From: Gonapodya prolifera JEL478
Taxonomy: Eukaryota; Monoblepharomycota; Monoblepharidomycetes; Monoblepharidales; Gonapodyaceae
NCBI GenBank assembly: GCA_001574975.1
Contig: KQ965823.1
Location: 1,372 to 65,371 of the forward strand
Length of the DNA stretch: 64,000 nt
Reading direction: 5' to 3'
Below, one piece after another: positions 21,083-61,640 of the stretch. How positions within the stretch are numbered: position 1 is the stretch's first letter; the number at the start of each line of letters is the position of its first letter. The notes below the pieces were generated by a model. It made no database searches and was not told where the DNA came from. It was given only the letters and a program-made list of their open reading frames with translations. The translations under genes and the position numbers were made by a program.

Positions 21083-22987
21083 TTAGAATCCGTAGACTTC
21101 CTTGGACAGGACGACGTGGATGCGTTTGGGACCCCATGGGTTGGAGCCGGAGAGGACGACTGTGTTCGGCGGTGCAACGCGTGATTGAGGAGGATGAAAC
21201 GAGATATGTGTCAACACACCACACCGCACTTGTCTCTCCCCATTGGCGGGTTCGCACCCCCCCACCCTAATAGCACCGAACTCACCAGTGTTGTTCGCAA
21301 ACGACCTCTCAACGCCATACACCAAATGCGCTCTCAAGCTCTCCACTTTCACCGCGTACTCATCCACCCTCTTATGCGCCTCCTCAAGTCCACCAGCGAC
21401 GATCTTGTTGGACCCGGCGAAGAAGACGACGTTGGACGAGGCGATGAGGCCGGCGGTCTTTGTGCCCGTGAGGTCGGCGGTGATGAGGGAGCCTGAGGAG
21501 GAGATGGCGTTGGGGGAGGCGAAGAAGTAGTCGGCGGACTGGGTGGGCGCGGGGCGGGGGGGCGGGGGCAGGGTTGAGGGCCGGGGTGGTAGGGTGTGAA
21601 GTACGAGTATGAGTGGGGAACGCAGCACGACGAAAGAAGCTCGGGAAGAGAGACTCACGTAACCCTCCTGGCGGAGCTTTGCGGCCTTGGCCTGGTCCTG
21701 CTCGGCGAGGAGAAGGGCGTGGAAGTTCTTGTACTTGTCNGTGGACTGCAGTTATGCGAGAACGGGGTAGATGGGATATGAGTCGATGTGGACGTTGAAC
21801 ACCAAAGACAAGGATACATCGCTCCCGCTCCGCATTCCTTTCGCCTCCGGTAGTTGATACACTCCGTGCGCGATAATTCGCTAGTCCGCCCATCACTCGC
21901 GCTTCGCCTTCGGCACACTACTCGGTCGTGCGTGCTTGGCACTCGCACTCCAGACTTCGCCAGAAAGACGACGACGTACCTTGAGGAAGTCAATGAACCC
22001 GACCTCGGTAAGACCCGTGCTGGATCCGTTAGCTGTCGAGAATCCGCAGAACGCCGAAGGAGTCAGCCACTTGATCCTCCTCCCTAACCCTTCCCCCACC
22101 ACCGCCCACAACCAAAAATGTCCACTCACACACACTAGCCCCCTCTGGCGCGAGTCCCTTGAGCACCTCGAGAGCCTCCTCCTTGGTAGACACCTGGTGG
22201 ACGACGAATCCGGCCTCGGTGAGGTTCTCGACGGTCTTGGCGTAGAGTTCGGCAGGGGCGGGGGCGTTGTACTTGGCGAAGTCGGCTGGATTGTGGTTGG
22301 AGGAGAGGTGGACAGAGGTGAAGAGAGGTGACGAGAAGTGAAGCGGGGTGAAGAGATGTGAATGTTAATAAGGTACATCATGTGACAGCACCAAGATGAG
22401 ATGAAGACATACCGTCGGAGATGAGAGGGTGATCCTTGTACTCCTTCTGGAACTCGGCGGCAGAGACAGGGATCTTCTTCTCGGGCGCTGGAGCGGCCTC
22501 CTCCTTCTTCTCTTCCTTGGCCTCCTCCTTCACCTCCTCTTTGACTTCTTCCTTTACTTCCTCTTTCGAGGCCTCAGTCACTGGAGCGGTCTCTGCCGCT
22601 AGAGTCTCGACAGCCTTCTCGGGCTCCGTTGCAGCAGGCGCCTCTGCCTCCTTGGCTGGTTCAGCGGCAGGCGTGGCGGGGCCTTCCACTACGGTTGCGG
22701 CGGCGACCTCGACCTCCTTGATTGCATCAGCAGGAGCAGCAGCTGATGATTCGCCCGCGGGTTCCGCAGCGGCGGGCTTGTCCTCCTTCACTGCGGCGAG
22801 AGGGGACGAGGCAGCGGGAGTGGATTTTTTCTCACTGGGGCGAAGACAGATGACACACAATAAGGAGAGGGGCGGGGAAATGGAATGGTCAGCGGTGGAA
22901 GGCAGAGACGGAGAGAGAGGGTACGCACATGGAGAACTTCTGGGAGAGACGCCTGAAGAAGTTCTTGATTGGAGTCTGCTCGGACAT
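21083..22987 (-). CDS. LUD-domain protein A (LutC/YkgG-like, DUF162) with long Ala/Glu-rich N-terminal extension
   Basis: Seven exons: 22987-22929, 22834-22413, 22285-22130, 22032-21980, 21745-21659, 21538-21286 and 21159-21083. They encode 368 residues, all in phase. The first ~160 residues are low-complexity (Ala, Glu, Pro, Lys; EEVKEEVKEE). The LUD core follows: DFAKYNAP, the NGSST...EVGFIDFLK strand, ADLTGTKTAG, FFAGSNKIV and NPWGPKRIHVVL near the C-terminus. LUD proteins are known from bacterial lactate utilisation; the role of the stand-alone eukaryotic form is not known to me. A paralog lies at 37968-39613 in inverted orientation and lacks the extension. Exon 5 contains an N (21740). 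Confidence 0.88.
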
Positions 22988-28246: not shown

Positions 28247-28486
28247 TGCTACACAACCTAGGTGAGCTGCACAAGCCTGTAAACTACAGGAATGTGTATA
28301 TATGATCAGATGTACATAGCAAGACATAATGTGCATAGAACTCACCTGCAGGAACGTGATGCCAAACTTAGGGCACGTCCTGCAGGTGTGCACATCTAAA
28401 CCCGCGGCCACAGTAGTGGCACAGCAGCTAATACCCAACACTCATACTACACTATATACTCCACGTTAGTGGATGTCAGTGTGACA
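28247..28486 (-). repeat. 240-bp LTR-like repeat, copy 2 (solo LTR fossil)
   Basis: An inverted copy of 2212-2451, also 240 bp and beginning TGT and ending GCA on the minus strand. Flanking 5-mers on the minus strand (TCTCC and TCTCT) are nearly identical, suggesting a worn target-site duplication. It sits exactly between the two units of the local tandem duplication. It is a fossil with no internal region. Confidence 0.6.
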
Positions 28487-37967: not shown

Positions 37968-39613
37968 ATGTCGATTCCCTTCACCGGCGCCGAACTCGCA
38001 AAGGCGCACGCCGGCAACGCCCTCATCAAAGACAGTGCGTGTTCCCTTGCTTCCGCGCCTTTCCATCGCACTCCTCACACTCCCCTCGCACCCGATTCCA
38101 TCCAATCCAATCCCACTCCCACTCCCCTTCCCATCTCGGATCGCACCCCATCCAGTCGACCTCGCAAAGTACTCCCCCGCGGCCTCCGACGCGCTCTTCC
38201 AAAAGGCAGTCGACGGGCTCACAAAGGCTGGATTCGTCGTCTACCCAGTCGCCACAAAGGCGGAGGCCCTCGAGAAGCTCAAGTCCATCGCTCCTGCCGG
38301 TGCCAGTGTCTGTGAGTTGGCGCAAGACGCGTGTTTGTGCCAGCGTGTCAAACAAACCTCTAACAACACCCCATCACGACCCGATTCTAAGCCAACGGAT
38401 ACTCCAGCTCCGCGGTTGATGTCGGATTCATTGACTTCCTCAAGGTGAGTCGAGCCGGCCGAGCGTGGCGAGGACTCCGAGGCCTAACGCGACAGCGCTG
38501 ACCGAGGCGTCCGCCGGAGGCGAATTGTCCCACGCGGAGGGTATCAACTGCCGGAGGCGGATGAATCGTGAAGCGATGTGTCCTTGTCTCCTGGTTGTCC
38601 ATGTCCATATCGACTCACTATCCATCCACCCACTCTCGCATTCCAGTCCACCGACAAGTACAAGAACTACCATGCCCTCCTCCTAGCCGAACAGGACCAG
38701 GCCAAGCAGGCCAAGCTCCGCCAAGAGGGATACGTGAGTTTTCTTCACGTCTTGTTCACCTTGTCTACCTTCTTCACCTTCATCCTCTTCACTTTCTTCA
38801 CCTTCTTCACTCTCTGCACCTTCATCACCTTCTTCACCACTTTTGCCCTCTCCAACCCTCGACCCCCAACCCCTTCACCCCAATCCCAACTCTCCCACCC
38901 AACCACAGGCCGCCGACTACTTCTTCTCCTCCCCCAACGCCATCGGCTCCGACGGCGTGTTCGTAGTCGCCGACCTGACGGGGACCAAGACGGCCGGAAC
39001 GGGTCCCTCGGGCAACCTGGTCCTGCTGGCCGGATCCAACAAGATTGTCGAGGGCGGGAAAGACGCCGCGCTCAGGCGGTTGTACGACTATGTAGTGCCG
39101 TTGGAGAGCTTGAGATCCCACCTTGTGTGAGTAGTCGATGTCCAAGGGGAAAGAGGTAAACCCGAGGTCTAATGCCGAGTATACGAGCGGAGCGAGGTGT
39201 TGGCCGGAGGCGAGTGAATCGCTGAGCGGAATATACTCATGGCGGAGCGAGGCGTGTGCTGGAGGCGAATTCTCCTGGTTACGTGCCTCGTTATCGAGGA
39301 GCGCGTATCGACCAGTAGGGATTTTTGCCACACGTGACCATACGCATACTGACCCCGTTCCACCTTCCTTCCACCGAAACCACACCACAGCTACGGCGTC
39401 GAGAAATCCGCCGCTAACAACGTCGGTGCGTACACTTCCCTCGTCTCCCTTCTCTTCCTTCCATTCCCAACTAACCCACCGTTCCCTCCTTTCTTCCTCA
39501 CCTTTCTCACCTCCCCCCACCCTCCCAATCCCCCAGTCGTTGTCTCGGGCGCCAACCCATGGGGCCCCAAACGCATCCACATCGTGCTCGTGAAGGAGTC
39601 GCTTGGGTTCTAG
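37968..39613 (+). CDS. LUD-domain protein B (LutC/YkgG-like, DUF162)
   Basis: Seven exons: 37968-38034, 38156-38311, 38392-38444, 38647-38733, 38909-39126, 39391-39425 and 39537-39613, encoding 230 residues. Motifs match paralog A step by step: DLAKYSPAASD, VDVGFIDFLK, YKNYHALLLAEQDQ, ADLTGTKTAG, LLAGSNKIVEGG and NPWGPKRIHIVL. Four corresponding exons have identical lengths (156, 53, 87 and 77 nt). B lacks A's low-complexity N-terminal extension. It has one extra intron (39127-39390) that splits A's 253-nt exon into 218 + 35 nt. Intron 38734-38908 is pyrimidine-rich with ttcacc-type repeats. Function beyond the LUD fold is unknown. Confidence 0.9.
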
Positions 39614-43025: not shown

Positions 43026-43211
43026 CTACTTTTTGGTTGATCGTTCATCTCTGTTGAGGATGCTGGGAAATGTTTTGGTCACCACACTCGAATTGTGCAC
43101 TGCATAACCACCCGAGAGTATGAAACTGGAATATCTGGCATAAACCTTGATCAGTGGATCGCAAAATGATTACTGTTCCGGCAGGTTTGGGCCAAATAGT
43201 TCGACCTCCTC

Positions 43212-44903
43212 ATGTCCCCATCCAGTCTTTCTCTGTTAAGGAAGCTCTACGCTGCCACGCTGAAGCACTGTGACGGACGGGATGAGTCGGATGACCTCTC
43301 GGCGACCCTGGAACCGTGCCGACAGCATTTGCGAGCGATCGAGACATCGACAGCGAGTCGGGCGCCCCCAGAGGTGCTCGATCAGTTGGGATCGAAGGAT
43401 TTGATGACCGTCACACGTGTTTCGTGAGTGGCTGTTGATGCTTCGGAGAGATTGATTTTGATCGAAGGACCGTCGTCGTTTGTCGCCCTCAGTTCGTCTT
43501 GGAGCAACAGCGCCCGGCTAGAACTTTGGGCGACCATCGATCTCGATAAGATGAGCATCCAAAAAAGGCGCTGGCTCAATCGGAGCTCTGTCGAGGCCTT
43601 GACGGATCGTGGTCGGCTTTGCCAATGTCAGAGTTTCCCATCACGTCGATTCTGAGAGATACAACCGACAATTCATGGAAGTACGATATAAGTGAGATCT
43701 CGGCTGTACCACATCAGTCACCAAAGTGACCTATCGTGTGTCAACGGATAGTTCAAGCGATCACTACATTGGCGACGCATACTTTGTTTTCTTGGGGGGT
43801 TTCTCCAGACGAACGGAGCTGGAGATGATCTGGCCACTTTTTGATACACGTGACGCACCTCACTCTATAGCCTGTCGGGACTCCTTGGCCGCGACGGCCG
43901 ACAAAGTCCAATTCCTGAAACGACTCACAATTGTCATGTATTGTGGGCTTTCTGGAGGACCTTACTGGGACGACAATGGCAACGAGGTGGACTCCATTGC
44001 CTTCAAAGACATTCGCAGATCCCCTCTCTGTCGTAGCGTGGACCACCTCACAACCAAAGAACGGGAGGTTGACTACAACATACTTCGCTCACAGAGTTAG
44101 ATGCGCCTGTGGACGGATTATGATTGCGAGATTCTTTTTTCTGGAAAATTAAGTCAGTTTGGACACCTCGAGAGTCTTGAGATTGGGTCGGTTCGAGGAA
44201 TGTCGCAGATGCGAGTTCCCTGGAGGATCAGCACATGAGCACACATCAAACGTTTTTGAATAGCATGGATTGGCGTAAAATGGGGGCTCTGACGCTGGAG
44301 GTGGATTATAGAAACAACAGCATGGACCTTGCGAAACGACTGTACCAGCAAATTTCGGAGCAATGTCGACAACTACGTTCGTTCAGCATATATACCTTTG
44401 CGCACGATTTTGGGGACGCTAATGACGTCCCGGGTGTGTCACTTTTTTCCTTGCTGACAATACTTCCTCCATTGGAAGAACTTCATCTTTACCCAACGGT
44501 GAGCCGCTGGCAACCCGAGAGGGAGTTCTCACATATACAAGACTCGCTGTATCAGATTTTCTCGCACCATTCGGCAATGGAAGCATTCTCTGTCAGGATT
44601 TGCTCCCTTTTCGATTCCACTTCCCTTGAAATTCTCATCTCGACTTTTCCTCGTCTCACAAGTCTAAGCCTTGATCACGCGGGCAAAGTATTGGCGGCGG
44701 ACCTGGCCGACGCCGTGGAAAGACTATTATTCCCGGAAGATTTAAGTTTTGAAGGGATGTCGGTCGCTTTACGACCAGTTGAAGTGGCGCACGCCAAAGT
44801 TCTTGTGGAACATCCGAGACTGAAGTCTTTTCGTTACAGTAAGTGTGACCTTGGCGGAGAAGATGTTCGTGATATGCTCTTTTGGAGGTTTGGAGCGACG
44901 TGA
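43212..44903 (+). pseudogene. F-box/LRR-like gene, copy 1 (pseudogene)
   Basis: Begins MSPSSLSLLRKLY. A shortened F-box follows (APPEVLD...KDLMTVTRVS), then an intron (from 43424 to the cctcag before 43493), then SWSNSARLELWATIDLDK and leucine-rich helical repeats ending near FRYSKCDLGGEDV. An inverted paralog lies at 53438-55065. Compared with it, this copy has lost part of the F-box, has a TAG at 44098-44100 where the paralog has GAG, and changes frame near 44220. It keeps about 130 nt (44225-44360) that the paralog has lost. F-box proteins are SCF ubiquitin-ligase adaptors; this one is unlikely to be functional. Confidence 0.7.
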
Positions 44904-45364
44904 TGTTGTTTTGCTGAAGTCGTCGGGACTTGGACATGTCTATGCCCTGACGGGGTATCCAATAATATTTATTCATGGAGATGAATACTGTATAGTTGAT
45001 GGTAAGGTTCCGAAGTTCGCCGAAGATCGACAGTGTCAAACTCTTGCCTGGACCGCGAACCAGTTGTGCTCTGTCGAATGGGAACGTTATCTACCCTTTT
45101 AGTCGACCACGTTGGTGGACAACAGGTCCAGCAATGTATTTATGTATTTGCGCTCATGTTCCGAATGGCTTCCCCAAATCATTCGACTTCTGTCATTCCC
45201 AAGGCTTCCCGAAGTCGACCCATTCATTACAGAGCTAATGCTTGATTAAAGGTACAATATATTTGAATTTTTCAAGTAGGTCTATTGGCGGAATGGCCGT
45301 GGTGACTTTGGTCCCGAAAGTTGCCAGCCATTTGGCCACACCGTCCACCCACCACGGACTTTCG
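44904..45364. other. Intergenic / golgin promoter
   Basis: No gene supported. The golgin frame is open upstream to 45242, but the ATG at 45365 gives a more typical start (MLRDLQSRLQ). Confidence 0.4.
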
Positions 45365-48300
45365 ATGTTGCGAGACCTGCAGTCTCGACTGCAAAGTGCT
45401 GTCCAAGGAGCGGGAGCACCTTCACCTTCCTCGCCCTCGTCAGTCGCGTCTGGGGGACAGCAAACGGCTCCAGCCTCCTCCGCGCCTGCAGCAGGAGAAT
45501 CTTCACCCGGAGCACAGACGAACGGGACAAATGAACCCCCATCGTCATCACAGGTGACGCCGACAGTAGCGTCGTCGGTGGTGCCTTCGCTTTTTTCAGC
45601 TCTGGGACTGACTGTGTCGACGACACAGTCACCTTCGACAATTACTGCTGTGGAGTCATCTGGGCCACAGTCTCCGGCTCGAAATACGCACGTTCGGTCG
45701 CCCTCCATCGTTGTCGACTCGCATCCTCTCGGTGGCGGAGACTCCGCCCCATCTTCACGTCCGGCAACACCGTCGACACCTTCGCAGCCTCAGGACTCGG
45801 GCGTTCAGAATGGTCGGTTATCGACATCGTCAGATGATTCGTATGCGGCGGTGGCAGCAAAGGTGAAGAAGTACGAGGCGAAACTCACAGGTGAGTACGA
45901 ATATCTTTTGCTGTTAATCATGTTCGTCTTCACCGAGCTTGCTCCCATTCGTTGACAGAACTCCTTCGCACACACAAAGCACTTGTCACGAAGTCACAAA
46001 TGGTTGATCGAGTTCTCAGAGACGCCACGCCGCTTCAGGGGATCCAGACGAGAGACGATGTCGAATTATTGGAGTCCTACCTGAAGGGCATGCGGGACAA
46101 GGCATCGGTTCGTCTCTTTTTGCTCATACGTTACCAAATCGACTCCTAAACGTTCCTTGTCTGTTCCTTTCGGCACCACCAGCTCACGCTTTCTGAAGTT
46201 TCTCGCCTCACAATGGAACTATCTGCGACGCAAAGTGCAGCCAAGGAGCGACAGGATGAGCTCGAAAAAGTCAAAGAAGAGCTCAAGACCAAGGACGAGG
46301 TGAGTCTCATTGTTCCGTGCTCAGAGCTCGACCACAATTCCCACATTTTCCACCTGATAATCCAACTCAGGAACTTTCTTCAATCCGTTCAACCCCTGCT
46401 CCTTCCACCGCCGAATCCTCACTCACCTCTCTCCCACATCCTAGTGCTCCTCAACCTTCCGAATTGCAAGCGTCCGACGATATTCTGGCGTCGCCATCAC
46501 CAGACCACAACTCTCTCCAAACCGAACTTGACAACAACCGCGCGGTTCTACTCGCGTCAGAGTCCCACGTGACCGAACTCGAGTCAAAAATCGCAGAGTT
46601 GGAGTCTCGCGCTGAGGCGGCACGGATCCAACGTGAAGAGGCGGTTGCACTCGTGGAAGGGTTGGAGCAGCGAGTTATGGAAGAGCGCGTGGCACGGGCG
46701 GAGACAGAGCGCCGAGCTGAAGAAGCGGAAGAGAGAATTCACAATGCGGAGAGGCTGTTGGAGGAAGCGAACGCTAGGGCGAGAGAAGACAACGTCAGAG
46801 TGGAGGAGGCATTGCGAAAGACGGTGGAAGCTGAGGCAAGGGTGACGGAAATTGAATCTCGAGTGGAGGAGACTGAGATGAGAGTTCGCGAGGCGGAACT
46901 GAAGACAGCTGAGACTTTGAAGAGGGCCTCAGAAGCCGAGGCAAGGATTTCGGACGCAGACGCTCGGACAGCCGAAGCTGAGCGCCGTGCACAAGATGCC
47001 GAAACCAAGGTGGATGCTGCGAACGCCCAAATCCGAGATGCAGAGAATGCGCTTGTTGAGACCAGAGTTGTCCTGGAGAAAGCGGAAAGACGTGCTGCAG
47101 ATGCTGAACGACAAGCCGAGGAGACCGCGACTCGTGCCAAGGAGTGCGAAGCTCGTCTTGCTGAGCAAAAATCCAGTTCTCTCTCGGAGGAATCGCCGGA
47201 AAGCCTCGAAACTGTGGAAGCTTCATCTCTCATCGAGCTCGGCTCCACCCTTTCCTACTCTTTGGCTGGTTTGGCGGATTTGGAGACAAATGTTAGAAGT
47301 CGGCTTGGCGACGTGAGAGACATGAAGATGAGGGTTGATGAACTCGAAGCGCTTCTGGATGTGAAAACAAAAGATCTCGACAAGCTGAAAGTGGACTTAG
47401 CGGGACGGGAGGCCCTAATGTTCGACATGTCTGGCCAGCTCGTCGACGCATCCGACAAGGTGGAGGAGCTTCAGGCCAAGATCTCCAAATTGGATGAGGT
47501 GGAGGCACAGATTGTTGTCCTGGAGGACCAGGTGGTCCAGCGAGAGAAAGAGCTCAAGCAGGCGCTGGAGAAAGCTGCTACGTTAGAATCTCAACTGTCG
47601 GAACGTGAGGAGGACTTGCGACGCACAGAAGTGGACGCCGGAATACTAAGCACCCGGTTTGCTGATCTTGAGTTTGAGCTTGGGGTGGCGTTAGGGAGGT
47701 TGGAGGGGCTGAAGAAACCTGGGCAAGGCGATGAAACGAAGAAATCGACTGTCAGCGGTTTTACATCTCACGAAGATGATTCAGATTTAGCTGGACAAAA
47801 GGGCGTCGACCTTGAAGCTCAAGTCGAGCGACTCCGCGGGGAAGGGTCATCGAAAGAGGCAGAGGTTCTTGAATTGACTGCGAGGTTGCAAGTCGCAAAG
47901 GATAAAGCAGAAGATTTGGGGAGCAAGGTGGCGACCTTGGCGGACACTCAGACCCAACTGCGTGAGAAGGTGGAGGAGGTGGAACGTCTCCGAGCAGAAA
48001 TTCAGTTGAGGGAGTACAACTTGACTGAAACTTCATCAGAACTCGCGACCACGGTGGTCACGGTGGATGAGCTTAAGTTCCGCATTTCCGCCTTAAGCGA
48101 AATGGAAAGGCGGTTCATTGAGAAGGAGGCAGAGGTCATCAAGCTCACGGAGGACATCAAGGGGCGAGAGACTCTCATGTTTGACATGTCAGTGCAGTTG
48201 CTTGAGGCCACGGATCGAGTCGAGGATTTGGAGTCTCTGATGGCAGAGAAGGCCACGACCACCGCCGCGACGGAGAAAGAGCTGGAAACTATGACACAAA

Positions 48301-51300
48301 GAGTCGGCGAACTGGAGCGCGAAATGGAAGTTGCGAGTGGACGTGTTGTTTACACGGAATCGCAGCTTGTCAATCTCAGGGAGCATCTTGATAAGGCTAA
48401 GTTGGATCTGGGCGACGCTGAAGCAGATGCAGCCCAGTTGAGGACCGAGATCGCATCTGTTCGACAACACGAGAACGAGCTGGAGTCCAACCTGGGTGAT
48501 CGCACTGCCGAAGTGGAAGCTCTACGTGCTGATTTGGAAGTGGAAAAGACTGCCTTGTCCGATGTGGAGCGATTGGCAAGATCCGCCGAAGACCGTACGA
48601 ATGAAATGGAGGGACGTTTGGCGGTTGTGAAGGGAGACCTCGCAACCGCGAAAGAGACGATTGCCTCGCTGAGAGCCGCGGCGGTGGAGCAAGGGGCCCT
48701 AGAAGATTCGAGAAGGAGGATTGAGTCGTTGGAGGAGGAGTTGGACACGTTGAAGAGTGAGTTGGACCGGACACGGGCGGACAGGGATGGCACTGTGCAA
48801 GACATCGAGGAACAGAGGCGCATCCTGGAGACACGTACAGTTGAAGAAGTGCGAGCGAAGGTGGACGAAGTACGGGCTGAGATGAATGCGGCGCACGCTT
48901 TGGAGGTCGCCGATTGGCAAGCTACGGTCAAGGATACCAAAAGTGAGAAAGATGTCACAGTTGAAGCTTTGCGAAAGGAGCTGAGCGAGGCAACTATCGA
49001 GTTGGAGAGTTTGAGGATGGATGTTAAGACGCTGGTGGAGGAAGTCGCGGTTCACAAAGCAGCAACGAAGGATGTCAACGGAAAACTTGACGCTGTTAAG
49101 GCACGATCAGCAGAACTGGAAGTTGAGCTGGCTCAGCAGAAGCAAACAGTCACTGACCTCGAAGAGAAACTCCTTGTCGCTACTTATCGACCTGCTGAGC
49201 TGGAAAGACTGCTCACTCGTGTACGATCGGACCTATCAGCACGGGAAACTGAAGTATCATCACTAAGATCCGGTGTTTATACTTCAGGGGACGCCTTAGA
49301 CCAGCTCGCAATCAAGGAGAAGGAAGTGGAAGAGTTGCGGGAAGAGCTCGACGAAATGAAAGAGCAGCTCGTGGTTGTGGAAGGCGAATGGAGGGCTATG
49401 GAGAGAAGGATGGTCGAAGCGGACTCAAAGGCGGCGAGAATGGAACTGGAGAGGGAAGCGTCAGCATCAGAGGCAACAGCCGCAGAAAAGGCGATTTCTG
49501 CTTTGAAGGACGAGTTGCGGACATTATCACGAGAGACAGAGGATGTGAAGCAAAAACTGGCAGAGGTTGAGGAGTGGGAGGGTGTACGTGCGGAGAGTGC
49601 AAAGGTGTTGGAGATGGAGCGAGCAGGAGCGGCGGCCTTGGCAAGAGCCGAGGAGAGACTCTCAAACGTAAGGCAAGACAGGGACACCAAAGAGATCAAA
49701 GTGAGAGAGTTAGAAGCGCGGTTGCGTGAGGTGGATGAGAAAGCAGGTGCGGCAGAGAAACGCGTCGCCGATATGGACGCTAACATTTCGAGATTGCAAT
49801 CCACGAATGAGGACCTACGTAGAGCACAATCTGAGGCAAAATCTTCCCAGGAATCACTTGAGGCTCAAGTTGAACGTTTGAGTGCAGAGATCGGATTGCG
49901 GGACGGTCGAATTGAGGACTTGGAGAGAGAGTTGAAAGCAGGATTCGCACGTGCAGAGGAGCTCGAGCGTCATCTGGGACTTTTAAAGCAAGAAGTGTCC
50001 ACACGAGATGGGGAGCTCCATCAACTTCGGGCGGGCGCCAGCAGCTCTTCGGACCTTGCCGAAGCTTTGGATGCCCGGGAAGCGGAATTGAAGTCAGTGG
50101 CTGAGAGGCTCGAGGCGGTGGAGAAGGCCTGGAAGGATGCAGAAGAGAAAGTCCAAGACGCACACAGGAAGATTGAAGAGGAAGCGCAAGAGATTCAAAA
50201 GCTGCAAGAAGAGGTCAGAAGAGTCCAAGCAGAGTACGAAAACGCAATGCGAGATCACGCAGGAGGCGAGGCGGCTTTGGCTGCAACAACCGATGAGTTG
50301 ATGGCTACGAAAGCGTCATTTTCGGCGGCGGAGGAAAGGAATGCTCAAGCCGAGGCAGCCGTGCGGGAGAAGGATACAGAGATAGAGCGCCTGCTGGATC
50401 AGGTGCAGACATTGGAGTTGGCGAGAGAGGCAACGTCGGGTGGAATGAAAGAGCTGGGCGACAAGCTCAAGGTGTTTGAAGAGAAGTGCGACACGCTCGA
50501 AGACGAGTTGGAGAGATTACGGGAGGATCTTGCGACGGTAACGACTGAGAGGGACGAACTTGCAGAGGCTGTTCCTGTATTAGAGCAATCGAAGGCAGAT
50601 AAGGAGAAGCGAATTGCTGGTCTGGAGGAATCTCTGAAATTGTGCAAGTCGGAACTCAACGAACGGGACCAAGAGTTACAGCAGATGAAGGAGCTTCAAC
50701 AGGAGGCAGAAGAGACCAAGAACAAGTCGATTCAGCTCCTTCGCAATTCCAAGTCCAGGATTCTCAAGATCGAAGCCGAGCTCAAGGACAAAGATGAGCA
50801 GATCGAACGACTTAAAGCCGACATGGAAGCGCTCCGTACGCAAGTTAGAGAGCGGGAGGTGGCGGCAGCGGCAGCGGAGAAGGAGCGGGAGCAGGCACTG
50901 CTGGATATGCAGACGGCCATCGCGAAGGCGGAAGGTGCCACTGCGTCGATCCAGGAAGCGAACAATACAGCCAAGGAGGCCGATTTCAGACTCCAGACTG
51001 TGCAGGCGCAGCTTGATGGACAGGTGGCGCAGAACGCCGCTCTTCGGACAGAAATATCCGCTCACGCCACCACGATATCGTCACTGTCAGGTCAACTGAA
51101 GGAGAAGGCGAATGAGCTCGTTGTGTCGCAGTCGTCTCTCCGCGAGTCTCAGTCCAAGATAACCCTGTTGGAGAGCAGAATACCCACACTTGAGACCGAG
51201 CTGGAAACATCGCGGCGGCTGTTCCAGACCAAATCGGTCGAGAACGATTCGCTTCGTGTTCGTGTGTCAGAGCTGGAAGGACGGATATACGAGATGACAG

Positions 51301-52637
51301 AAGACAGGGATCGATTGCAGAGGGAGTTGGAGGGTGTCGTGAAGGACTTGAGGGACTTGAAGGGGGAAGTGGTGAGCAAAGGGAGAGAGCTCAAGCGAAA
51401 GGACACTGAAATCAGAGAGGCCGAGAAGAAGGTGGTGGAGGGGGATCGGGCTTTGGAGGAAGAGCGGGTGAAACTGGACATGGCGAATGTCGAGCTGGAG
51501 AAACTTCGACTTCGGATTGCGGACTGTGCGGCGAGAGAGAAAAATCTTGTAGCTGATGTGGAGTCTAAGGAGGTGAGTGAAATCAACCGAATAACTTGGA
51601 GCCAGCACTAAACAAAGCGGTTTGGGATCAGGTGTCCGTTGCCAACCTGGCAGAGCGTCTCGAGGCAGCCGAACAATCTTCTCGTCAGCTTCAGGAGAGG
51701 AGCGAGCGGCTTGCGGAAGATTACAAAGTTCGGGAAGGTCATTACAAGGCGGTGAACAAGGTACGTTATTGAAAGTGTCCGTCTTTCAGCGTTATACGAC
51801 TCAGTCTGCTTTCGGAATGACACGTAGACGCTGAAAGACGAAATCCGAAAACTCCATCGCAAGCTTGGAGGCCTTGACAATACCCCTTCTCCATCACCAT
51901 CACCCAACATGAGCCAGTTGACACGTTCGATGACATCGCCCATTACCCCACTCAGCCGCCGCGCCTCGGCCGATCAGCCACGTTCGTTCGAGCGGTCCAG
52001 CGCCGCAACATCCACCCGTGAGCGACCTCGGTCTGCCTCGGAGGAGGGTCTGGCCGCGATCGCTGCAAGCATAGTCGCATCCGCATCCACACGACCCAGT
52101 GCACTACCGTACCGCGCACCCTCACCCGCCGGTGCCTCGGCACCTTTGCAGATCTACACCACACGCGCGGCAACGACGACCCCCTTCGCCACCGAATCCG
52201 CGCCGCAATCGCCGACGTCACGACAACCGCGCATGTCGTTCGGAAACTCGCCGGGTATAACGAGTCCAAGCAGAGGTGGACCAGCGTCGAGCGCTATGGG
52301 GCCCGATGAGGTGAATGTGGATTACTTGAAGCAGGTGTTGATTCAGTTCGTGGAGAAGAAAGAGTTTAGGGTGAGTTTCGTGAGGGCACTAGTTCTTTAT
52401 AACACTTTTACTCGACACTCACGCACCCAACCGTTTCAATCCATCGTCACGTCACTTGCGTCACTGCGTGATCGCATTCGCTTCAATAGAAGAGTCTCAT
52501 ACCAGTTTTGGGAATGATACTGCGATACTCGCCTGAAGAAGGTGAGCCGAATTCTACTCGACTGATCAAACTGGTAAGATAGTAACCACTTCTGTCTTTT
52601 AAAAACAGTCTACCGCATGCAGAAGCTCGTCCGATGA
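45365..52637 (+). CDS. GRIP-domain golgin (giant coiled-coil trans-Golgi tether)
   Basis: Eight exons: 45365-45890, 45959-46107, 46183-46299, 46371-51572, 51632-51760, 51828-52370, 52490-52541 and 52609-52637. They encode 2248 residues, all in phase. A Ser/Pro/Thr-rich head is followed by roughly 1700 residues of almost unbroken coiled coil (Glu, Leu, Lys, Ala heptads). A Ser/Pro-rich region and a C-terminal GRIP domain at about 2203-2248 follow (VNVDYLKQVLIQF then SLIPVLGMILRYSPEE), with the conserved Tyr at about 2207. GRIP domains bind Arl1-GTP at the trans-Golgi; yeast Imh1 and animal golgin-97/245 are the model members. It is about 2.5 times the length of yeast Imh1. The gene lies between two inverted F-box pseudogenes. 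An ATG at 45242 is a less likely start. Confidence 0.9.
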
Positions 52638-53437
52638 GACATGCACGTTCGATACCGCGTCGAGGGGATGGCTATGATATGTATTGACAGTTTTGAATTC
52701 ATTGCACGATTCGTTGGAGATTTGAAGAGCAATAATACACTAGAGTGACAGACATTCGGTGATTCCCTCCAAAGAAGCATTGAGTTTGAACTGTCATGGA
52801 ACGTTCACAAGCCCAAGCCCAAGGAGAAAGCGCGTCGGTAATACAGAAAATTTAATCTGGATCAGTACACAGCTCTCTCCTAATATTGATACGTTGAGGT
52901 CTACAAGCCCTTCCACTCCTCCCGCTCTCCTCCTGAACTTCGATGGGAATGGTGGCTTTAGCCGTCCGACCCCAAGCACACCGACGAAGTCGCTGCATCG
53001 AGGCCGGTCGTTGCTTCCAAATGTCATAACAGCCAGACGTGGATCTTCTACAATTGGCTTTACTTCTGAGTTGACCTTCGAAGAGCCGACAAGAGCGAAT
53101 TCGGCAAGCGAACTGCGAAAGAGTACGCTCTGGAAGTCGAGTGGGCTCAGCACACGGCGAAAAAGTTGGGGTTCCACATCAACATGTTTAATGCAGAATT
53201 TGCAACCCTTCGCAAGTTGGTCAGCGCAGATGGTTGCGGATATCCTACGGCTGAGATGCCTTTGGTTATTGCCCACGACAAATGTCTTATGAGGAAGCGG
53301 TTTTTGAGAAGCTTCTTGCAGATCGTGGATACGGAGTTATGGAGCCTCAACAGCTTGCAGATGTACCTGATCACTTGAGCCACCCCGCGAAGTCACAGAC
53401 CTGTCCTTATGGTATTCGAACTGCAGCGCGAAGCAAC
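52638..53437 (+). pseudogene. Unidentified gene remnant
   Basis: Frame 52759-53292 is Ser/Pro/Arg-rich (about 177 residues). From about 53085 another frame reads like a real folded protein (AKEYALEVEWAQHTAKKLGF, FNAEFATLRKLVSADG). It continues, after a one-base change of frame near 53281, into SYEEAVFEKLLADRGYGVME and PQQLADVPDHL. Amphipathic helices of that quality are unlikely by chance. I do not recognise the family. It is either a pseudogene or a gene with unresolved introns. It ends against the 3' end of the minus-strand F-box copy. Confidence 0.4.
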
Positions 53438-55065
53438 TCATTTCCCACCAAACATTCGAAAGAGCACATCTCGCACATCCTCCCCGCCAAGATCATACTC
53501 GCTGTACCGAAGCGACTTCAATCTCGGATGCTCCACGAGAACTTTGGCATTGCGCCATTTCAACAGGTCGTAGCCCGATCATCAACTCAATACGTAAGTC
53601 CTCCAGGAATAAGAGCCGTCCAACGGCGCCTGTCAGGTCCACCGCTGGGATTCTACCAACGCGATCGAGGGTTAGGCTCGTGAGGCGAGGACAAGTTGAG
53701 GTGAGGATTTCGACGGAAGCAGAAATCGAAAAGAGAGCATACCCCGAAAGAGAATGCTCTCATTGACGAATCTTGCAGCCAAATCTGGCGAAGTGACTCC
53801 TGCTTTTGTGGGAACTCCCTTTCGTGGTTCCAGCGGCTCACGGTTGGGTAAAGATGCACTTCTTCCAATGGCGGAAGTGTCGTCAGCAAGGAAAAAAGTG
53901 ACATGCCTGGGGCGTTAATATCATCTCCAAAATCGTGCGTGAATGTGTACAAGCTGAGAGAACGTAAACGTCGACATTGTTCTTCCAAGGCACTTGTATT
54001 TTCGATCTTTCTCGAAATGCCCCCAGCGTGAGACTCTTCAGGTGTCCAAACTGACTCAAAATTCCCGAAAAAAGAATCTCGTGATCATAGTCTGACCATA
54101 GGCGCAGCTCGCTCTGTGGGCCAAGGGTGTTGTAATCAACTTCTCGTTCTTTGATGGTCAGGTGCTCCACGCTACGACAGAGAGGAGATTTTCGAATGTC
54201 TTTGAAGCCAACGGAATCCAACTCGTTACCATTGTCGTCCCAGTACGGTCCTCCAGAAAGCCCACAATACATGACAATTGTGAGTCGTTTCAGGAATGGG
54301 ACTTTGTCGGCCATCGCGGCCAAGGGGTGCCGACAGGCTATAGAGCGAGGTGCGTCGCGTGTATCAAACAGCGGCCAGATCATTTCCAATTCCGTCAGTC
54401 TGGAGAAACTCTCCAAGAAAACAAAGTATGCGTCGCCAATGTAGTGATCACATGAACTATCCGTTGACACACGATAGGTCACTTTGGTGACTGATGTGGT
54501 ACAGCCGAGCTCTCACTTATATCGTACTTCCATGAATTGTCGGTTGTATCTCTCAGAATCGACGTGATGGGAAACTCTGACATTGGCAAAAGCCGACCAC
54601 GATCTCCCAAGGCCTGGGCAGAGCTTCGATTGATCAAGCGCCTTTCCTGAATGCTCATCTTGTCAATATCGATGGTTGCCCAAAGCTTTTGTCGGGCGCT
54701 GTTGCTCCAAGTCACACTGAAATCGACGGCATACTGAACATCAATCTTGCTGATGTATCCGGGACGTCAGTCACTCACGAAACAAGTGTGACAGTCATCA
54801 CATCCCTCGATCTCAAGTGTTTTACGATGGCATCAAGCACCTCTGGTGGTGCCCGACTCGCTGGCGATGTCTCGATCGCTCGTAAATGTTGTCTGCACAA
54901 TTCCGGGGTCGCGGAGAGGTTTTCCGAAACATTCTGTCCCTCGCAGCACTTCGCCGTGGCGGCGTTGAGTTTTCTCAGCAGAGAAAGATGTGAAGGCGAC
55001 ATGAGGAGGACGAACTGTTCGAGGAGAGGGTTGCAACACTTCATGTGGCCAACATATGCCCCCAA
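53438..55065 (-). pseudogene. F-box/LRR-like gene, copy 2 (probably pseudogene)
   Basis: Exon 1 (55065 to about 54791) encodes MSPSHLSLLRKLN and an intact F-box core, APPEVLDAIVKHL then VMTVTLVS. An intron (GTGAGTGACT...TTTCAG) leads to TWSNSARQKLWATIDIDK. A 26-nt frame step (54491-54516) leads to VTYRVSTDSS, followed by LRR-like helices (LTELEMIWPLF, LKRLTIVMYC, LPPLEEVHLYP). It lacks about 130 nt present in copy 1 and shows frame changes in the C-terminal part (about 53700 and 53550). Homology to copy 1 nevertheless continues to the stop near 53438 (DLGGEDVRDVLF in the restored alignment). It is better preserved than copy 1 in the N-terminal half. Confidence 0.65.
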
Positions 55066-56497: not shown

Positions 56498-59400
56498 TCA
56501 CATATCAAGCGATCGTCCAGACTTTGTGAGAGACCGCAACAACTTCTTCACGTCATCCGATATGTCATTATCTTCACATGAAGTGTAAAAGCTATGTCAA
56601 CACAGCGTTGCATTCCGCTTCGTCCCTACAAATCAACTCACTTGCCATCCAAACGGATGTGAGCGTCGTGTTCCTCCTCAGCGCCTCCGCGAGAGCGCGC
56701 GCGCCTTCGTTCCCAATATTGTTACCTGAGAGGCAAGGATCACAAAGAACGTTGCGAAACAAGAGGACAAAAGAGTGGTAATGATACTCCGAGGAAAGAG
56801 GTTTGGTGTGCACCTATGCACTCACTGTTCAATCCCAAACTTTGAAGTGTGCGATTCACTTTAAGCGCGTCGGCTATTGCCCGCGCTCCAGCTTCGCCAA
56901 TGCCGTTGTCTTCGGTCATAAGGTGCGGAAAGTCGGTAAAAGAGTGTAAGTCGGAGCGAAAGCCGAGATTTTCCAGTATGGAAATCGGTATGGGCACAAT
57001 ACGTCGTCGAACAGGGTTAAAATTACATCAGAGACATGGCCAGAACATCGAGGCGTCGTGCTCACGGTCTAATTCCAGTTTTGTAAGCATAGCGTTTACT
57101 TTCAGAGCACGCCCGATTTCCACAGCACCTTCCGGGCCAATATTGTTTGCTGTGGTAGTTCACAATACCAGCGCATTAGGTGGCAGGAGTACGAGATAAA
57201 CAGCAAGGGTCACGGATGACGTGAGTTGGAGGAAAAGTGATCATTGAAGGGGGTTACTCACTATCCAAGTTGAGTTTCGTAAGAGCGGTGTTCACTTTCA
57301 AAGCATCCGCAATGGCCAAGGCGCCATCAGTACCAATATCGTTCCCTTGAATGTATCGGGACGGGTGGTAATGGAGGAGAACAGGTCAGATCGATGATCA
57401 GTGAGTAGTTTCAGGAGCAGCTGTACCCACTGTCCATGTCGAGATATCGGAGCACGTTATTCACTTTGAGGGCATCCCCGATTGCACGTGCGCCGTCAGC
57501 TCCGATGCTGTTCTCTGTGAATTCAAGTTTTGCGACCGCCGACGAAAGTAGAGAATATTTGAGGGCAGAAGTTGATAAGAAGAAGGAAAAGAATGGGGTC
57601 AGGAGGGGTCAATCGATCGGTGAGACGGTGCGTGCGCAGTACGGCGATAGAACAGATCATAAAAGTAGCGTTTTTATACCCACTTTGCACCCCGAGAGTT
57701 GTGAGCACAGAGTTCACTTTGAGCGCTGCCCCAAGCGCCCGAGCACCGTCAGCTCCAATATTGTTGTCTAGAGAGAGACAGAGAGTTCATCAAATACGGT
57801 AAGGGAAGAAGGACATAACACAATATTGGTCTCACTGTTCAAATGAAGCGTTGTGAGTGCAGTGTTTACTTTGAGGGCTTCTCCTATCGCCCGTGCACCA
57901 TCAGAGGTGATTCCATTATCTTCGATATGATAGTAGGCAGCGCGAATATGAAGGTTGCAAGAGTGTAAGGAATGGTAGTTTGCGTCAGTATTGTCTCAAA
58001 AGGACTCTTCCCCACCGGTGATCTCATGTCGCACCCACTTCTAATCGCCAGTGTTGTAAGTTTTGTGTCATCTTTGATTGCATCTGAAATCACGCCGGCT
58101 CCACTATCACCAATGCCGTTTTCTTTTTGATGAAGAAGAATCAAAATTGTAGAGAATGTGTGGTAGAAGAAGTCAAAAGAATCTCGGCATGACATCTTGA
58201 GGTGTAAAGGAAAAGCGGGGCACTTACGAGTCAGGTTCAATTTGTTTACTTGTCTGATCTCGAACAGACCCCATGTTGCCTCTAAGGGGAGAAAGTGACC
58301 CACGATTTCCACATCTTCCGTCCCTGGAACATTCCAAAGACGCTCGAAAATTGATCTAAGATAGGCAGAAACGTGCGCCAAATTTGATAGTTCCTTGACT
58401 CCAAGGCCTTCAATGTTTCGGATCCTGTTTGGAACTACCCAAGGATCTTTCCCCACACTACGAGATAGGTCCCACCCCTGTTGCTCATCTTGATCAACAC
58501 CAATGCCGTAGAAATAGCAATGACCGAGATTTTCACGTGCAGCCGGATAACCCTGGTCGCTTGCTCTGTGGTACCACTCCATCGCTTGTTTGACTGAGTA
58601 TGGAGCAGGTTTCGCTCCGGGGGGACGGCTGGTACTCTTCTTGAATTCGTATGAAGTATACTCCATCACTTCACTTGAGGTTTCCGCGGTGAACGAGCCC
58701 AATAGTCCATGAAAGTATAGATCACCAAGGTTGCACATTGCCCCGGCATGACCTTGCTCCAGTGCCTTCTCATAACATTGCTTTGCACCAGCAAAGTCTT
58801 TGAGCGACTCACGCACCAATCCCAAGTTGAACTGTGCGTCGGCATTGCCTCCTTGCGCTACGTTTGAGAGATATGCCATCGCCCGCTCCGTGTTCACCTC
58901 TACTCCAAGACCGAGCAAATAGCATTCCGCCAAAAGAACCTCGGCCGTAAGGTTGCCTTGGGCTGCAGCTGCCTCAAACAGCTTCACAGCCTCTTCGTAG
59001 TTCCATTTCACACCATAGCCATGCATCAACATGGTGCCAAGGCGTATCTGAGAGACGGCATGCCCCAAGACTGCTCCACGATTGTAGAATTCCTTGGCAC
59101 GATCATAGCTCCTCCTACAATAGCCGATGCCATAAAGGAAGAAATCTCCCAAACTGCACAACGCGTCCGGGTGGTTCTGCTTCGCCGCTTCTTGATACCA
59201 CGTGAAAGCAAGGCTCACATCTTGGTGGTGAAGGCCGATACCGACCCTGCACCACTCGGCAAACTCGTACTGAGCCTCGATGTGACCCAGCTCTGCCGCG
59301 TATTTGTATAGCGAGAAGGCGGTTTCGACCTCTCCCTTCAGTTGCGCAGTGCGTGCTTGCTCGTACGCAGTCTCTGCATCAGTGATACTGCAAAGGGCGT

Positions 59401-60843
59401 CGACGTGAGAGTTCAACATGTTCGAGTTCGATGGTATAGGTCGGAGTTCTGGGAGTTCTGGCCTACGCGTCAATTAAAGAAAAATAAATTTTCGTGAGCG
59501 TAAATCCATATCTCATTCTTGAACTGCTGACAAATACCATAGGTGCTCGAACTCGGAAATAATGTCTCGGAATGTCGGCCGCTTTAGAGGTTCTGATGCC
59601 CAGCATCTCACCATCAAGTCCGCGAGTGCATGAGGCATTGTTTCAGGAATATTGGGCCTGCGACCTGAAAAGACCTCTTCCATCGTCTCAAGTAATGTAT
59701 CGTTATCCACGTCCCCGAACGGGCAACTATCCCGCGACCAGCACTTTGGGAAGACAGGGACATGTCAGACCAAATTGAAAAGATATTAGGCTACCATGCC
59801 CAATTTACCACCCATAGCATGATCCCAAAGGCATACACATCCCCAGCTTTAGTCACGGAGCTCGTTGCACCATCAATCGCAAGTACATGACCGAGTCTCT
59901 CCGGGGGAAGATAAAACAATGTCCCCGGCAGAACAGCATTAATTTCGCTGGAAGTAAGTGCCGCGAAACCAAAATCTGCCACCACTCCACGTCCTGAAGA
60001 CGTGACGAGAGCGTTGTCCGGTTTTAGATCAGTGTGGATCAGACCGACTACTTCGTGGAGGTAGAGCATTCCTCTAGCCACGTCGTAGAGCTACGTGAAA
60101 TGCACGCGGAGTAGTGTGAGACTGCACGTTAAACACGAGATGATTGCTCAACGCAAAATATGGTTAAAACCCACCAGCCCGACACACTCCTTGTGGTATT
60201 CGTCCATTCTATCACCGTATTCAATCTCTCTACGCTGGAGATATTTGACCACGCTGCCATTCTCCATGATGGGACAAACAAAGAAGGGTTGTCTGTTCAC
60301 GTCGAAACCAACACCGTAGAGGGGCAACACGAATGGGGAGGTAATCGTCGACCACACAAGCGCCTCTCGATCAAAATCCTGTCACGATTGTGATTGAACT
60401 TGGAAATTGACCTCCATCAAGCAAAAATTGCCCGTACATACCTTCTTGCTATAGTTTGGTCCCTGTCCGTCCGAATATAGAACGGTGAGCACTGTACGAG
60501 AAGTGCGTTGAACCCCTTTCCCCGCCTTTTGCTTTCCAAGCGCCCTATAATCTAGATTGCGAGTTGTGTTTCCGATTCCTGGGAGACCTGTCACTTCGCG
60601 CGACTCTGCAGATGGGGCAGCACTGCTTCCCGCATAATCATCAGCGGCCGAGAACTGGCGATCGTCATGGAGAAGGCGATATTCATCCAGGGCGACTCTC
60701 TTCAGGGCAACCTTGATTCCTCGCCACCACCCAACGTTGACTGCACCCGAGCCACCGCTCCCGAGTTTTTCATTCGTCCAACGCACTTCGCTGTTGGTCA
60801 CCTCCCAGAACTCCGGGAGGCGCGCGGTGTGCATTCCCGCCAT
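56498..60843 (-). CDS. Protein kinase - Sel1 repeat - LRR fusion protein
   Basis: Fourteen exons: 60843-60442, 60378-60175, 60090-59812, 59743-59538, 59462-58228, 58122-58039, 57919-57836, 57767-57684, 57514-57431, 57345-57262, 57149-57066, 56909-56826, 56725-56642 and 56571-56498. They encode 1023 residues, and all phases agree. The kinase (about 20-360) has GSGGSG (28-33), VALK (Lys48), HTDLKPDN (catalytic Asp223, Thr in place of the usual Arg), ADFG (Asp241) and a low-complexity insert before helix C. About seven Sel1 repeats follow (410-695; for example AAELGHIEAQYEFA). RNase-inhibitor-type LRRs make up 776-1023 (NNIGADGARALGAALKVN). Each of exons 6-13 is 84 nt, phase 1, and encodes one LRR. 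It is probably an intracellular signalling or scaffold protein; the substrate is unknown. It ends in NNDISDDVKKLL, a partial repeat. Confidence 0.87.
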
Positions 60844-60895: not shown

Positions 60896-61640
60896 ATGAT
60901 CACCCTCACGTCGCTCCCCATCGACATCCTCCTGCACGTCCTTGTCCACCTCGCCACGCGCATGGTTTTCTTCACGTACGTCCCGCTCGTGTGTCCATCA
61001 TTCAGAGACCTGCAGCGGGGAATCGTCCAAGGTTTGACACTTGGTACTTCATCCCCCACCACGGCGATACTGAAACAAGGCCCACTCAATAGTCACGACG
61101 GCAACTGCTGCGATCCAAGTCGACCGCTAAAAGATGTCGCGCCTCGTCACGATCAGCGAACTTATCGAACTTGGGCAAACCATGCAGTCCACCGCCTTGG
61201 AAGATGCTGCAAATCGCGACCGCATGATTGATTCACTGCGCAGCAAAGTCTTGCGCTGGTTTTTGGCTGACAGACGAGACCAGTGGAGTCTCTACACCTT
61301 CAGATGCCAGATGCATTTCGACTGGGAAGATATCGAGTCCGCCGCGGCCCATGCCGTTACGACCGCTCTCAACATCGCAGAAGGAAACCGTCAAATTTCT
61401 CCGCATACCCCACATTTGGATCATCAATGTACCGTTGTCTGCACTATATCGCTCTCCCGCACGTGCGGAAGTTCTCGACATCCCAGACGGTTGTCGACAC
61501 GTCCATGTTCCGAGATTTTGATGGCACCGTGGCAATACATGAGTCTTTGGAGGGCTCACGCTTTCGCTCACAGTCCTGCACCCCCGGGACAACGCCGACA
61601 AAGGCCGATACGTGGCGACTCTCTCAACCCTCGGTGATGC
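60896..61640 (+). pseudogene. F-box-like protein, fragmentary
   Basis: The first frame starts MITLTSLPIDILLHVLVHL and continues FTYVPLVCPSF, matching the F-box pattern LPxEILxxILxxL...VC. Other frames then carry plausible protein: MSRLVTISELIELGQTMQ...LRSKVLRWFLADRRDQWSLY (61134-61380), FLRIPHIWIINVPLSALY (about 61400-61460) and EVLDIPDGCRHVHV. No set of standard introns joins them cleanly by eye. It is either a decayed gene or one whose introns I could not resolve. It is not obviously the same subfamily as the F-box pair at 43-55 kb. Confidence 0.4.

What the first reader, a model, noticed from the sequence alone, without database searches (positions are those of the whole stretch)
56498..60843. 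Kinase, Sel1 repeats and RNase-inhibitor-type LRRs fused in one predicted protein
Seen: every exon joins in phase from GSGGSG...DFG through seven Sel1 repeats to eight-plus LRRs. Known: kinase-Sel1 proteins are expanded in some early-diverging fungi. NLR-like systems pair a signalling module with repeat arrays. Inference: this three-part order suggests a cytoplasmic sensor in which LRRs and Sel1 repeats scaffold or gate a kinase, without a NACHT/NB-ARC switch. The HTD instead of HRD motif suggests a TKL-like or divergent regulation mode.
Basis: partly seen in the sequence, partly recalled or inferred. Interest (0 to 1): 0.75.

Follow-up and report, generated by a model that had tools for sequence, protein, structure and literature searches.

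The report
Kinase joined to Sel1 and LRR repeats
One gene in this unidentified eukaryote predicts a protein kinase carrying two binding scaffolds, the second cut into one exon per repeat as in animal NOD-like receptors, which would make it a receptor-like kinase of an unusual build if its transcript is confirmed.

Summary
On the minus strand, 60843..56498, 14 exons with GT-AG introns join in frame into 1024 residues. Pfam finds a kinase (2.3e-32), Sel1 (2e-34) and LRR_6 repeats (5.7e-35), and no NACHT or NB-ARC. Exons 6-13 are each 84 nt, phase 1-1, one 28-residue LRR each; they differ 64.5% at third codon positions against 30-33% at the others. Most human NOD/NLRC genes are cut this way (PMC6642158, section 6). 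HTD makes this a non-RD kinase, a class associated with innate immunity (PMC8463890, passages). Kinase-like proteins with Sel1 repeats are reported in Glomeromycotina; the LRR array is the unusual addition. The weakest joint is intron 4, kinase to Sel1: lowest summed splice score of 13, and retention gives a kinase-only protein. No relative of this order was found, but no eukaryote genomes were searchable. Whether it is an immune sensor is open: the two best solved LRR matches are not immune receptors, and several others are axonemal.

The parts
60442..60843 (-). exon 1: start codon, glycine loop GSGGSGAV, VALK lysine, about 80-residue insert
   Evidence: motifs; insert not explained by a missed intron
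60175..60378 (-). exon 2: helix C (DFDREA), hinge, start of C lobe
59809..60090 (-). exon 3: HTDLKPDN catalytic loop, DFG, PPE, DVYAFG
59538..59743 (-). exon 4: kinase C lobe to KRPT and last helix
59463..59537 (-). intron 4, the kinase-Sel1 joint; 75 nt, donor GTATTT, acceptor GCGTAG; retention gives TGA at 59515-59513
   Evidence: lowest donor+acceptor sum (11.7) of 13 introns; intron 3 has a slightly lower donor score
58228..59462 (-). exon 5: uninterrupted Sel1 array, linker, first half LRR (VNKLNLT)
   Evidence: fold of this exon matches solved Sel1 proteins
58039..58122 (-). exon 6: LRR, 84 nt, phase 1-1
57836..57919 (-). exon 7: LRR, 84 nt, phase 1-1
57684..57767 (-). exon 8: LRR, 84 nt, phase 1-1
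57431..57514 (-). exon 9: LRR, 84 nt, phase 1-1
57262..57345 (-). exon 10: LRR, 84 nt, phase 1-1
57066..57149 (-). exon 11: LRR, 84 nt, phase 1-1
56826..56909 (-). exon 12: LRR, 84 nt, phase 1-1
56642..56725 (-). exon 13: LRR, 84 nt, phase 1-1
56498..56571 (-). exon 14: capping unit and stop codon TGA

Best explanation
A single intracellular kinase (probably Ser/Thr, TKL-like, non-RD) whose C-terminal Sel1 solenoid and RNase-inhibitor-type LRR solenoid bind partners. Proposed working: the LRR concave face and the Sel1 array capture a ligand, a substrate or a second copy of the protein; this brings kinase domains or substrate together and raises phosphorylation, as in proximity-activated RIPK/IRAK-type kinases (recalled). 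Because each LRR is one 84-nt symmetric exon, skipping any of exons 6-13 would shorten the solenoid by one repeat without breaking the frame, so the binding surface could be varied by splicing. Shown: gene model in frame, domain identities, catalytic residues present, exon-per-repeat layout, protein-level constraint on the repeats. Inferred: one transcript, activity, binding, activation mode, splice variants.
For: In-frame 14-exon model; Pfam domains; catalytic Lys, Glu, Asp, Asn and DFG kept, the HRD Arg replaced by Thr; LRR exons constrained at codon positions 1 and 2 (divergence 0.325, 0.304) and much less at 3 (0.645); concave-face columns more variable (mean entropy 2.06 bits) than core (0.38) or other columns (1.54), 8 repeats; LRRs match RNase inhibitor, NLRP chains and 5irm/5irl (listed as 'uncharacterized protein'; rabbit NOD2 by recall); exon 5 matches solved Sel1 folds; non-RD kinases associated with innate immune functions in plants and animals (PMC8463890, passages); expanded kinase and Sel1 genes of Rhizophagus have been proposed to act in perception of the environment (PMC8647823, passage).
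Against: No transcript; intron 4 has the lowest summed splice score. No relative of the same order in what could be searched. The immune link of non-RD kinases is a correlation, and for EFR the kinase activity itself was dispensable for immunity. The two best LRR matches in the PDB (2e-48, 2.6e-39) are not immune receptors. The face-variability signal rests on 8 repeats.
Confidence: 0.5

Rival explanations
1. Two neighbouring genes or two isoforms: a kinase-only product that ends at 59513 by retention of intron 4, and a separate Sel1-LRR product starting at a Met in exon 5.
For: Intron 4 has the lowest donor+acceptor sum of 13 (11.7; others 12.1-19.1), and a stop codon lies at intron positions 23-25. 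The kinase profile match reaches position 257 of 258 within exon 4.
Against: 93 nt separate that stop from the first Met codon in exon 5, little room for a terminator and a promoter; phases match across the intron; 59538/59462 is the only well-scoring donor/acceptor pair that keeps the frame (scores, frames worked out by hand); kinase-like proteins with Sel1 repeats are reported in Glomeromycotina (PMC8778642, passage).
Confidence: 0.15
2. A structural scaffold kinase of the flagellar axoneme or another large assembly, not a sensor.
For: The two best LRR matches in the PDB are an RNase-inhibitor-like chain of 9y6s (2e-48) and MOP84A of 9e5c (2.6e-39); LRRC34 of 9fqr (axonemal doublet by its title), DRC5 and radial spoke protein 15 also match, and so does 8th8_G, a 345-residue chain named 'Kinase domain protein' in an entry that also holds a flagellar associated protein (1.2e-16). 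That 9y6s and 9e5c are axonemal is recalled. A chain of 9fqr also appears in the fold search with the Sel1 exon.
Against: RNase inhibitor (2.1e-31), 5irm (1e-28) and NLRP chains (from 9.2e-22) also match strongly, the first two close to LRRC34 (4.3e-31) though well below the top two; RNI-type similarity does not resolve function; it is not known whether the source organism has flagella.
Confidence: 0.2
3. A general signalling kinase from an expanded kinase-Sel1 family that picked up an LRR array by exon shuffling, without a recognition role (substrate docking).
For: Kinase and Sel1 families are each expanded in Rhizophagus (PMC8647823, PMC6123716, passages); kinase-like proteins with Sel1 in Glomeromycotina; eEF2K is among the fold matches of exon 5 (substrate docking by its repeats is recalled); symmetric phase-1 exons are easy to shuffle.
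Against: The LRRs are long diverged yet constrained, so the array has a kept function, which may still be docking.
Confidence: 0.3

Closest known systems
MLKL-family-like proteins with Sel1 repeats in Glomeromycotina
   Same: kinase-like domain with repetitive Sel1 domain in an early-diverging fungal lineage (PMC8778642, passage)
   Different: the passage gives neither the domain order nor any LRR (the word LRR does not occur in that text); here an LRR array follows
Vertebrate NOD/NLRC receptors
   Same: 28-residue RNase-inhibitor-type LRRs, one per exon, border at a fixed place of the repeat (PMC6642158 section 6)
   Different: no NACHT here; kinase on the same chain; Sel1 array present
Klebsormidium NB-Sel1-LRR proteins (KfNLR clade II)
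   Same: Sel1-like repeats and LRR motifs in one predicted receptor-like protein (PMC7145615, passage)
   Different: an NB domain in place of the kinase; LRR motifs in an outer-dynein-arm light chain domain
ROCO/LRRK proteins
   Same: LRRs combined with a signalling module; an LRR-Roc-COR protein also came up in a bacterial contig (L005)
   Different: no Roc-COR GTPase here
Plant non-RD LRR receptor kinases (EFR)
   Same: LRR plus non-RD kinase on one chain (PMC8463890, passages)
   Different: those are membrane receptors with extracellular LRRs first (recalled); here the kinase comes first, the LRRs are RNI-type, and no membrane span is evident by eye

Membership tests
Eukaryotic protein kinase | kinase profile and catalytic residues K, E, D, N, DFG | tested here: met
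   HRD Arg is Thr (non-RD)
TKL group | placement inside the TKL group by phylogeny | not tested
   only profile preference, motif reading and PDB ranking, where tyrosine kinases outrank RIPK4
Sel1-like repeat proteins | 36-residue Sel1 helix pairs | tested here: met
   fold of exon 5 (mean pLDDT 56.4, 170 of 411 residues under 50; residues about 41-240 better) matches solved Sel1 proteins at E down to 6.3e-12 with low TM-scores (0.35-0.46 by query length for the top five)
RNase-inhibitor-type LRR proteins | 28-29 residue LRRs of the LRR_6/RNI class | tested here: met
NLR (NOD-like receptor) | NACHT or NB-ARC switch | tested here: not met
   no such family among the 24 listed at E up to 1
NLR (NOD-like receptor) | one 28-residue LRR per frame-preserving exon (NOD/NLRC class; not defining by itself) | tested here: met
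   against PMC6642158
ROCO/LRRK | Roc-COR tandem | tested here: not met
Plant LRR receptor kinase | extracellular LRRs, transmembrane helix, then kinase | tested here: not met
   order is kinase first; no membrane predictor was run

The most novel reading that the evidence does not exclude
A cytosolic recognition receptor that does without an NTPase switch: a non-RD kinase on the same chain as an exon-cassette LRR array that arrived independently at the NOD/NLRC exon design, its repertoire varied by in-frame skipping or shuffling of 84-nt LRR exons, in a lineage (if fungal) whose NLRs are reported to use ANK, TPR or WD repeats instead of LRRs.
Probability: 0.2. Interest if true: 0.8.

Novelty: new variant of a known kind. 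Interest (0 to 1): 0.5.

Why it matters
Fungal NLRs are described as carrying ANK, TPR or WD40 repeats in place of LRRs (PMC9815663, passage), and a survey that counted LRRs as valid repeats reports NLR numbers from one upward in Chytridiomycota and Mucoromycota and none in some other early-branching fungi (PMC12258605, passages). If the source is such a fungus, an LRR array cut like that of animal NOD receptors and attached to a non-RD kinase would be a different route to an intracellular recognition protein. The exon design makes a direct prediction: splice variants that differ by whole repeats.

Tried and rejected
Scan of viral contigs with six short peptide patterns from the whole protein: no match. 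LRR alignments against viral contigs: 43 and 156 pattern stretches, none confirmed by tblastn. LRR alignment against bacterial and archaeal genomes: 162 stretches, 5 confirmed loci, all 5 read; 4 of 5 were scanned by Pfam and show no kinase or Sel1, L005 having Roc-COR; L004 was read by eye only (LRRs after an F-box-like start). Plasmids: no match to the spliced LRR array. Other kinase, Sel1 or LRR copies in the window: three weak hits only, E 0.15-0.75. Recent tandem duplication of exon+intron units: not supported, as none of 36 intron pairs exceeded its shuffled mean by 4 s.d.; exons 8 and 9 do still align at DNA level, 72% over 93 nt. Missed intron in the kinase insert: rejected on scores. 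NCBIfam: 13 families listed for the kinase part, all far below their cut-offs. RNA families and tRNAs: one tRNA-Glu, nothing near the gene. Papers: ten searches, seven of them on Sel1 with kinases or LRRs; no kinase-Sel1-LRR protein is named in the listings or in the passages opened from nine papers, but one search listed 15 of 45 papers and only an open-access library is held.

Full report
Gene model. On the minus strand from 60843 to 56498, 14 exons joined by GT-AG introns of 63-169 nt give 3075 nt and 1024 residues with no internal stop. In a first attempt 5 of 13 acceptors were 1-4 bases off and the LRR part lost its frame. The final acceptors all end in AG and, in the LRR region, lie at the same point of each repeat, as the donors do; I chose them with the repeat in mind, so the equal exon length is not independent of that choice, but the AG and GT at that exact place in each repeat are in the sequence. 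Pfam reports PF07714 at 2.3e-32, PF00069 at 5.4e-26, PF08238 at 2e-34 and PF13516 at 5.7e-35, and no nucleotide-binding switch.

Kinase. The glycine loop, VALK lysine, helix C glutamate, catalytic aspartate, KPDN asparagine, DFG and PPE are present, so the domain could be active. HTD lacks the arginine of HRD, which defines a non-RD kinase. [quoted passage not shown] the last point warns against assuming that activity is what matters here. Tyrosine kinases (EGFR, Src-Abl ancestor, Eph) outrank RIPK4 among the 60 of 867 PDB matches shown, so the TKL label rests on Pfam preference and Ser/Thr-type motifs, not on a tree. An insert of about 80 residues lies between the lysine strand and helix C; no well-scoring in-frame intron explains it.

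Sel1 part. Exon 5 (1235 nt) holds the whole Sel1 array without an intron. Folded alone from its single sequence it gives a helical solenoid of modest quality (mean pLDDT 56.4, pTM 0.54, 170 of 411 residues under 50). Its best solved matches are Sel1 proteins (E down to 6.3e-12, TM-scores 0.35-0.46 by query length for the top five). DELE1 and eEF2K, two kinase-pathway proteins, also appear in that list; the roles of their repeats in oligomerisation and substrate docking are recalled.

LRR part. Exons 6-13 are each 84 nt, phase 1-1, one 28-residue repeat each, with the border in the codon just before the conserved Asn. Between the eight exons, mean divergence is 0.325, 0.304 and 0.645 at codon positions 1, 2 and 3 (28 pairs): old duplicates under constraint on the protein. 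None of 36 pairs of the nine introns stands out from shuffles, though exons 8 and 9 still align at DNA level (72% over 93 nt). Concave-face columns vary more than the rest, as expected of a binding surface, but with eight repeats this is weak. [quoted passage not shown] The same layout is found here. The contrast with the rest of the gene is only partial: exons 2 and 3 also preserve frame, exons 4 and 5 do not.

The contrast within one gene is notable: a Sel1 array with no intron beside an LRR array with an intron in every repeat. This suggests different histories for the two arrays; in Batrachochytrium a Sel1 protein is listed among candidate transfers from bacteria (PMC5005798, passage). This is a suggestion only.

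The joint. Intron 4 is where the three-part claim is most exposed. Its donor GTATTT scores 5.7 (intron 3 is slightly lower, 5.5) and its donor+acceptor sum 11.7 is the lowest of 13. A stronger donor (8.3) lies at 59612 inside the kinase, but from the coordinates it would shift the frame with either good acceptor (59462, 59448). Reading through the intron gives a stop ending at 59513. I put about 0.85 on the joined protein being made.

Relatives. No eukaryote collection was available. The full protein's six peptide patterns matched nothing in viral contigs. An LRR alignment gave five confirmed loci in bacterial genomes out of 162 pattern stretches: Rickettsiaceae, a Rickettsia endosymbiont, Saganbacteria, Amoebophilus and Neomegalonema, each an uninterrupted LRR frame; 4 of 5 were scanned by Pfam and none has a kinase or Sel1. 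Whether this architecture exists elsewhere is therefore untested.

Function. The best reading is a scaffolded kinase whose LRR and Sel1 arrays bind partners. The immune-sensor reading is attractive because the non-RD kinase, the RNI-type LRR and the exon-per-repeat layout each recall innate immune receptors, and expanded kinase and Sel1 genes of Rhizophagus have been proposed to act in perception. None is exclusive to such receptors. The two best solved LRR matches (9y6s, 9e5c) are not immune receptors, several further ones are axonemal, and one is a chain named 'Kinase domain protein' in an entry with a flagellar protein (8th8), so an axonemal or docking role remains open.

Noticed in passing
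43195-44914 and 53428-55019: Two inverted copies of one gene-sized segment, 83% identical over 1055 nt and 76% over 560 nt; the frames at 44181-44900 and 53886-54512 have no Pfam match.
   Followed up: partly
21108-22291 and 38150-39588: Two inverted copies of a LUD-domain gene (PF02589, 4.2e-8 in the first copy; pieces of 69-87% DNA identity); the one frame of the second copy that was scanned, 38572-39156, gave no Pfam match.
   Followed up: partly
60896-61231 (+): A divergent open frame whose ATG lies 52 nt from the kinase start codon; it looks like an F-box start by eye (LTSLPIDILLHVLVHL), but Pfam finds nothing.
   Followed up: partly
46260-52517 (+): Long coiled-coil frame (1783 residues) followed by a frame with a weak GRIP match (0.0035, below cut-off), golgin-like.
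   Followed up: no
2212-2451 and 28247-28486: 240-nt inverted repeat, 97% identical, perhaps a mobile element fragment.
   Followed up: no
L005:7518-10712: LRR-Roc-COR protein in a Neomegalonema MAG contig.
   Followed up: no
L001:7326-8351 and L002:1705-2664: RNI-type LRR arrays with a similar ALKxN signature in Rickettsia-related MAG contigs.
   Followed up: no
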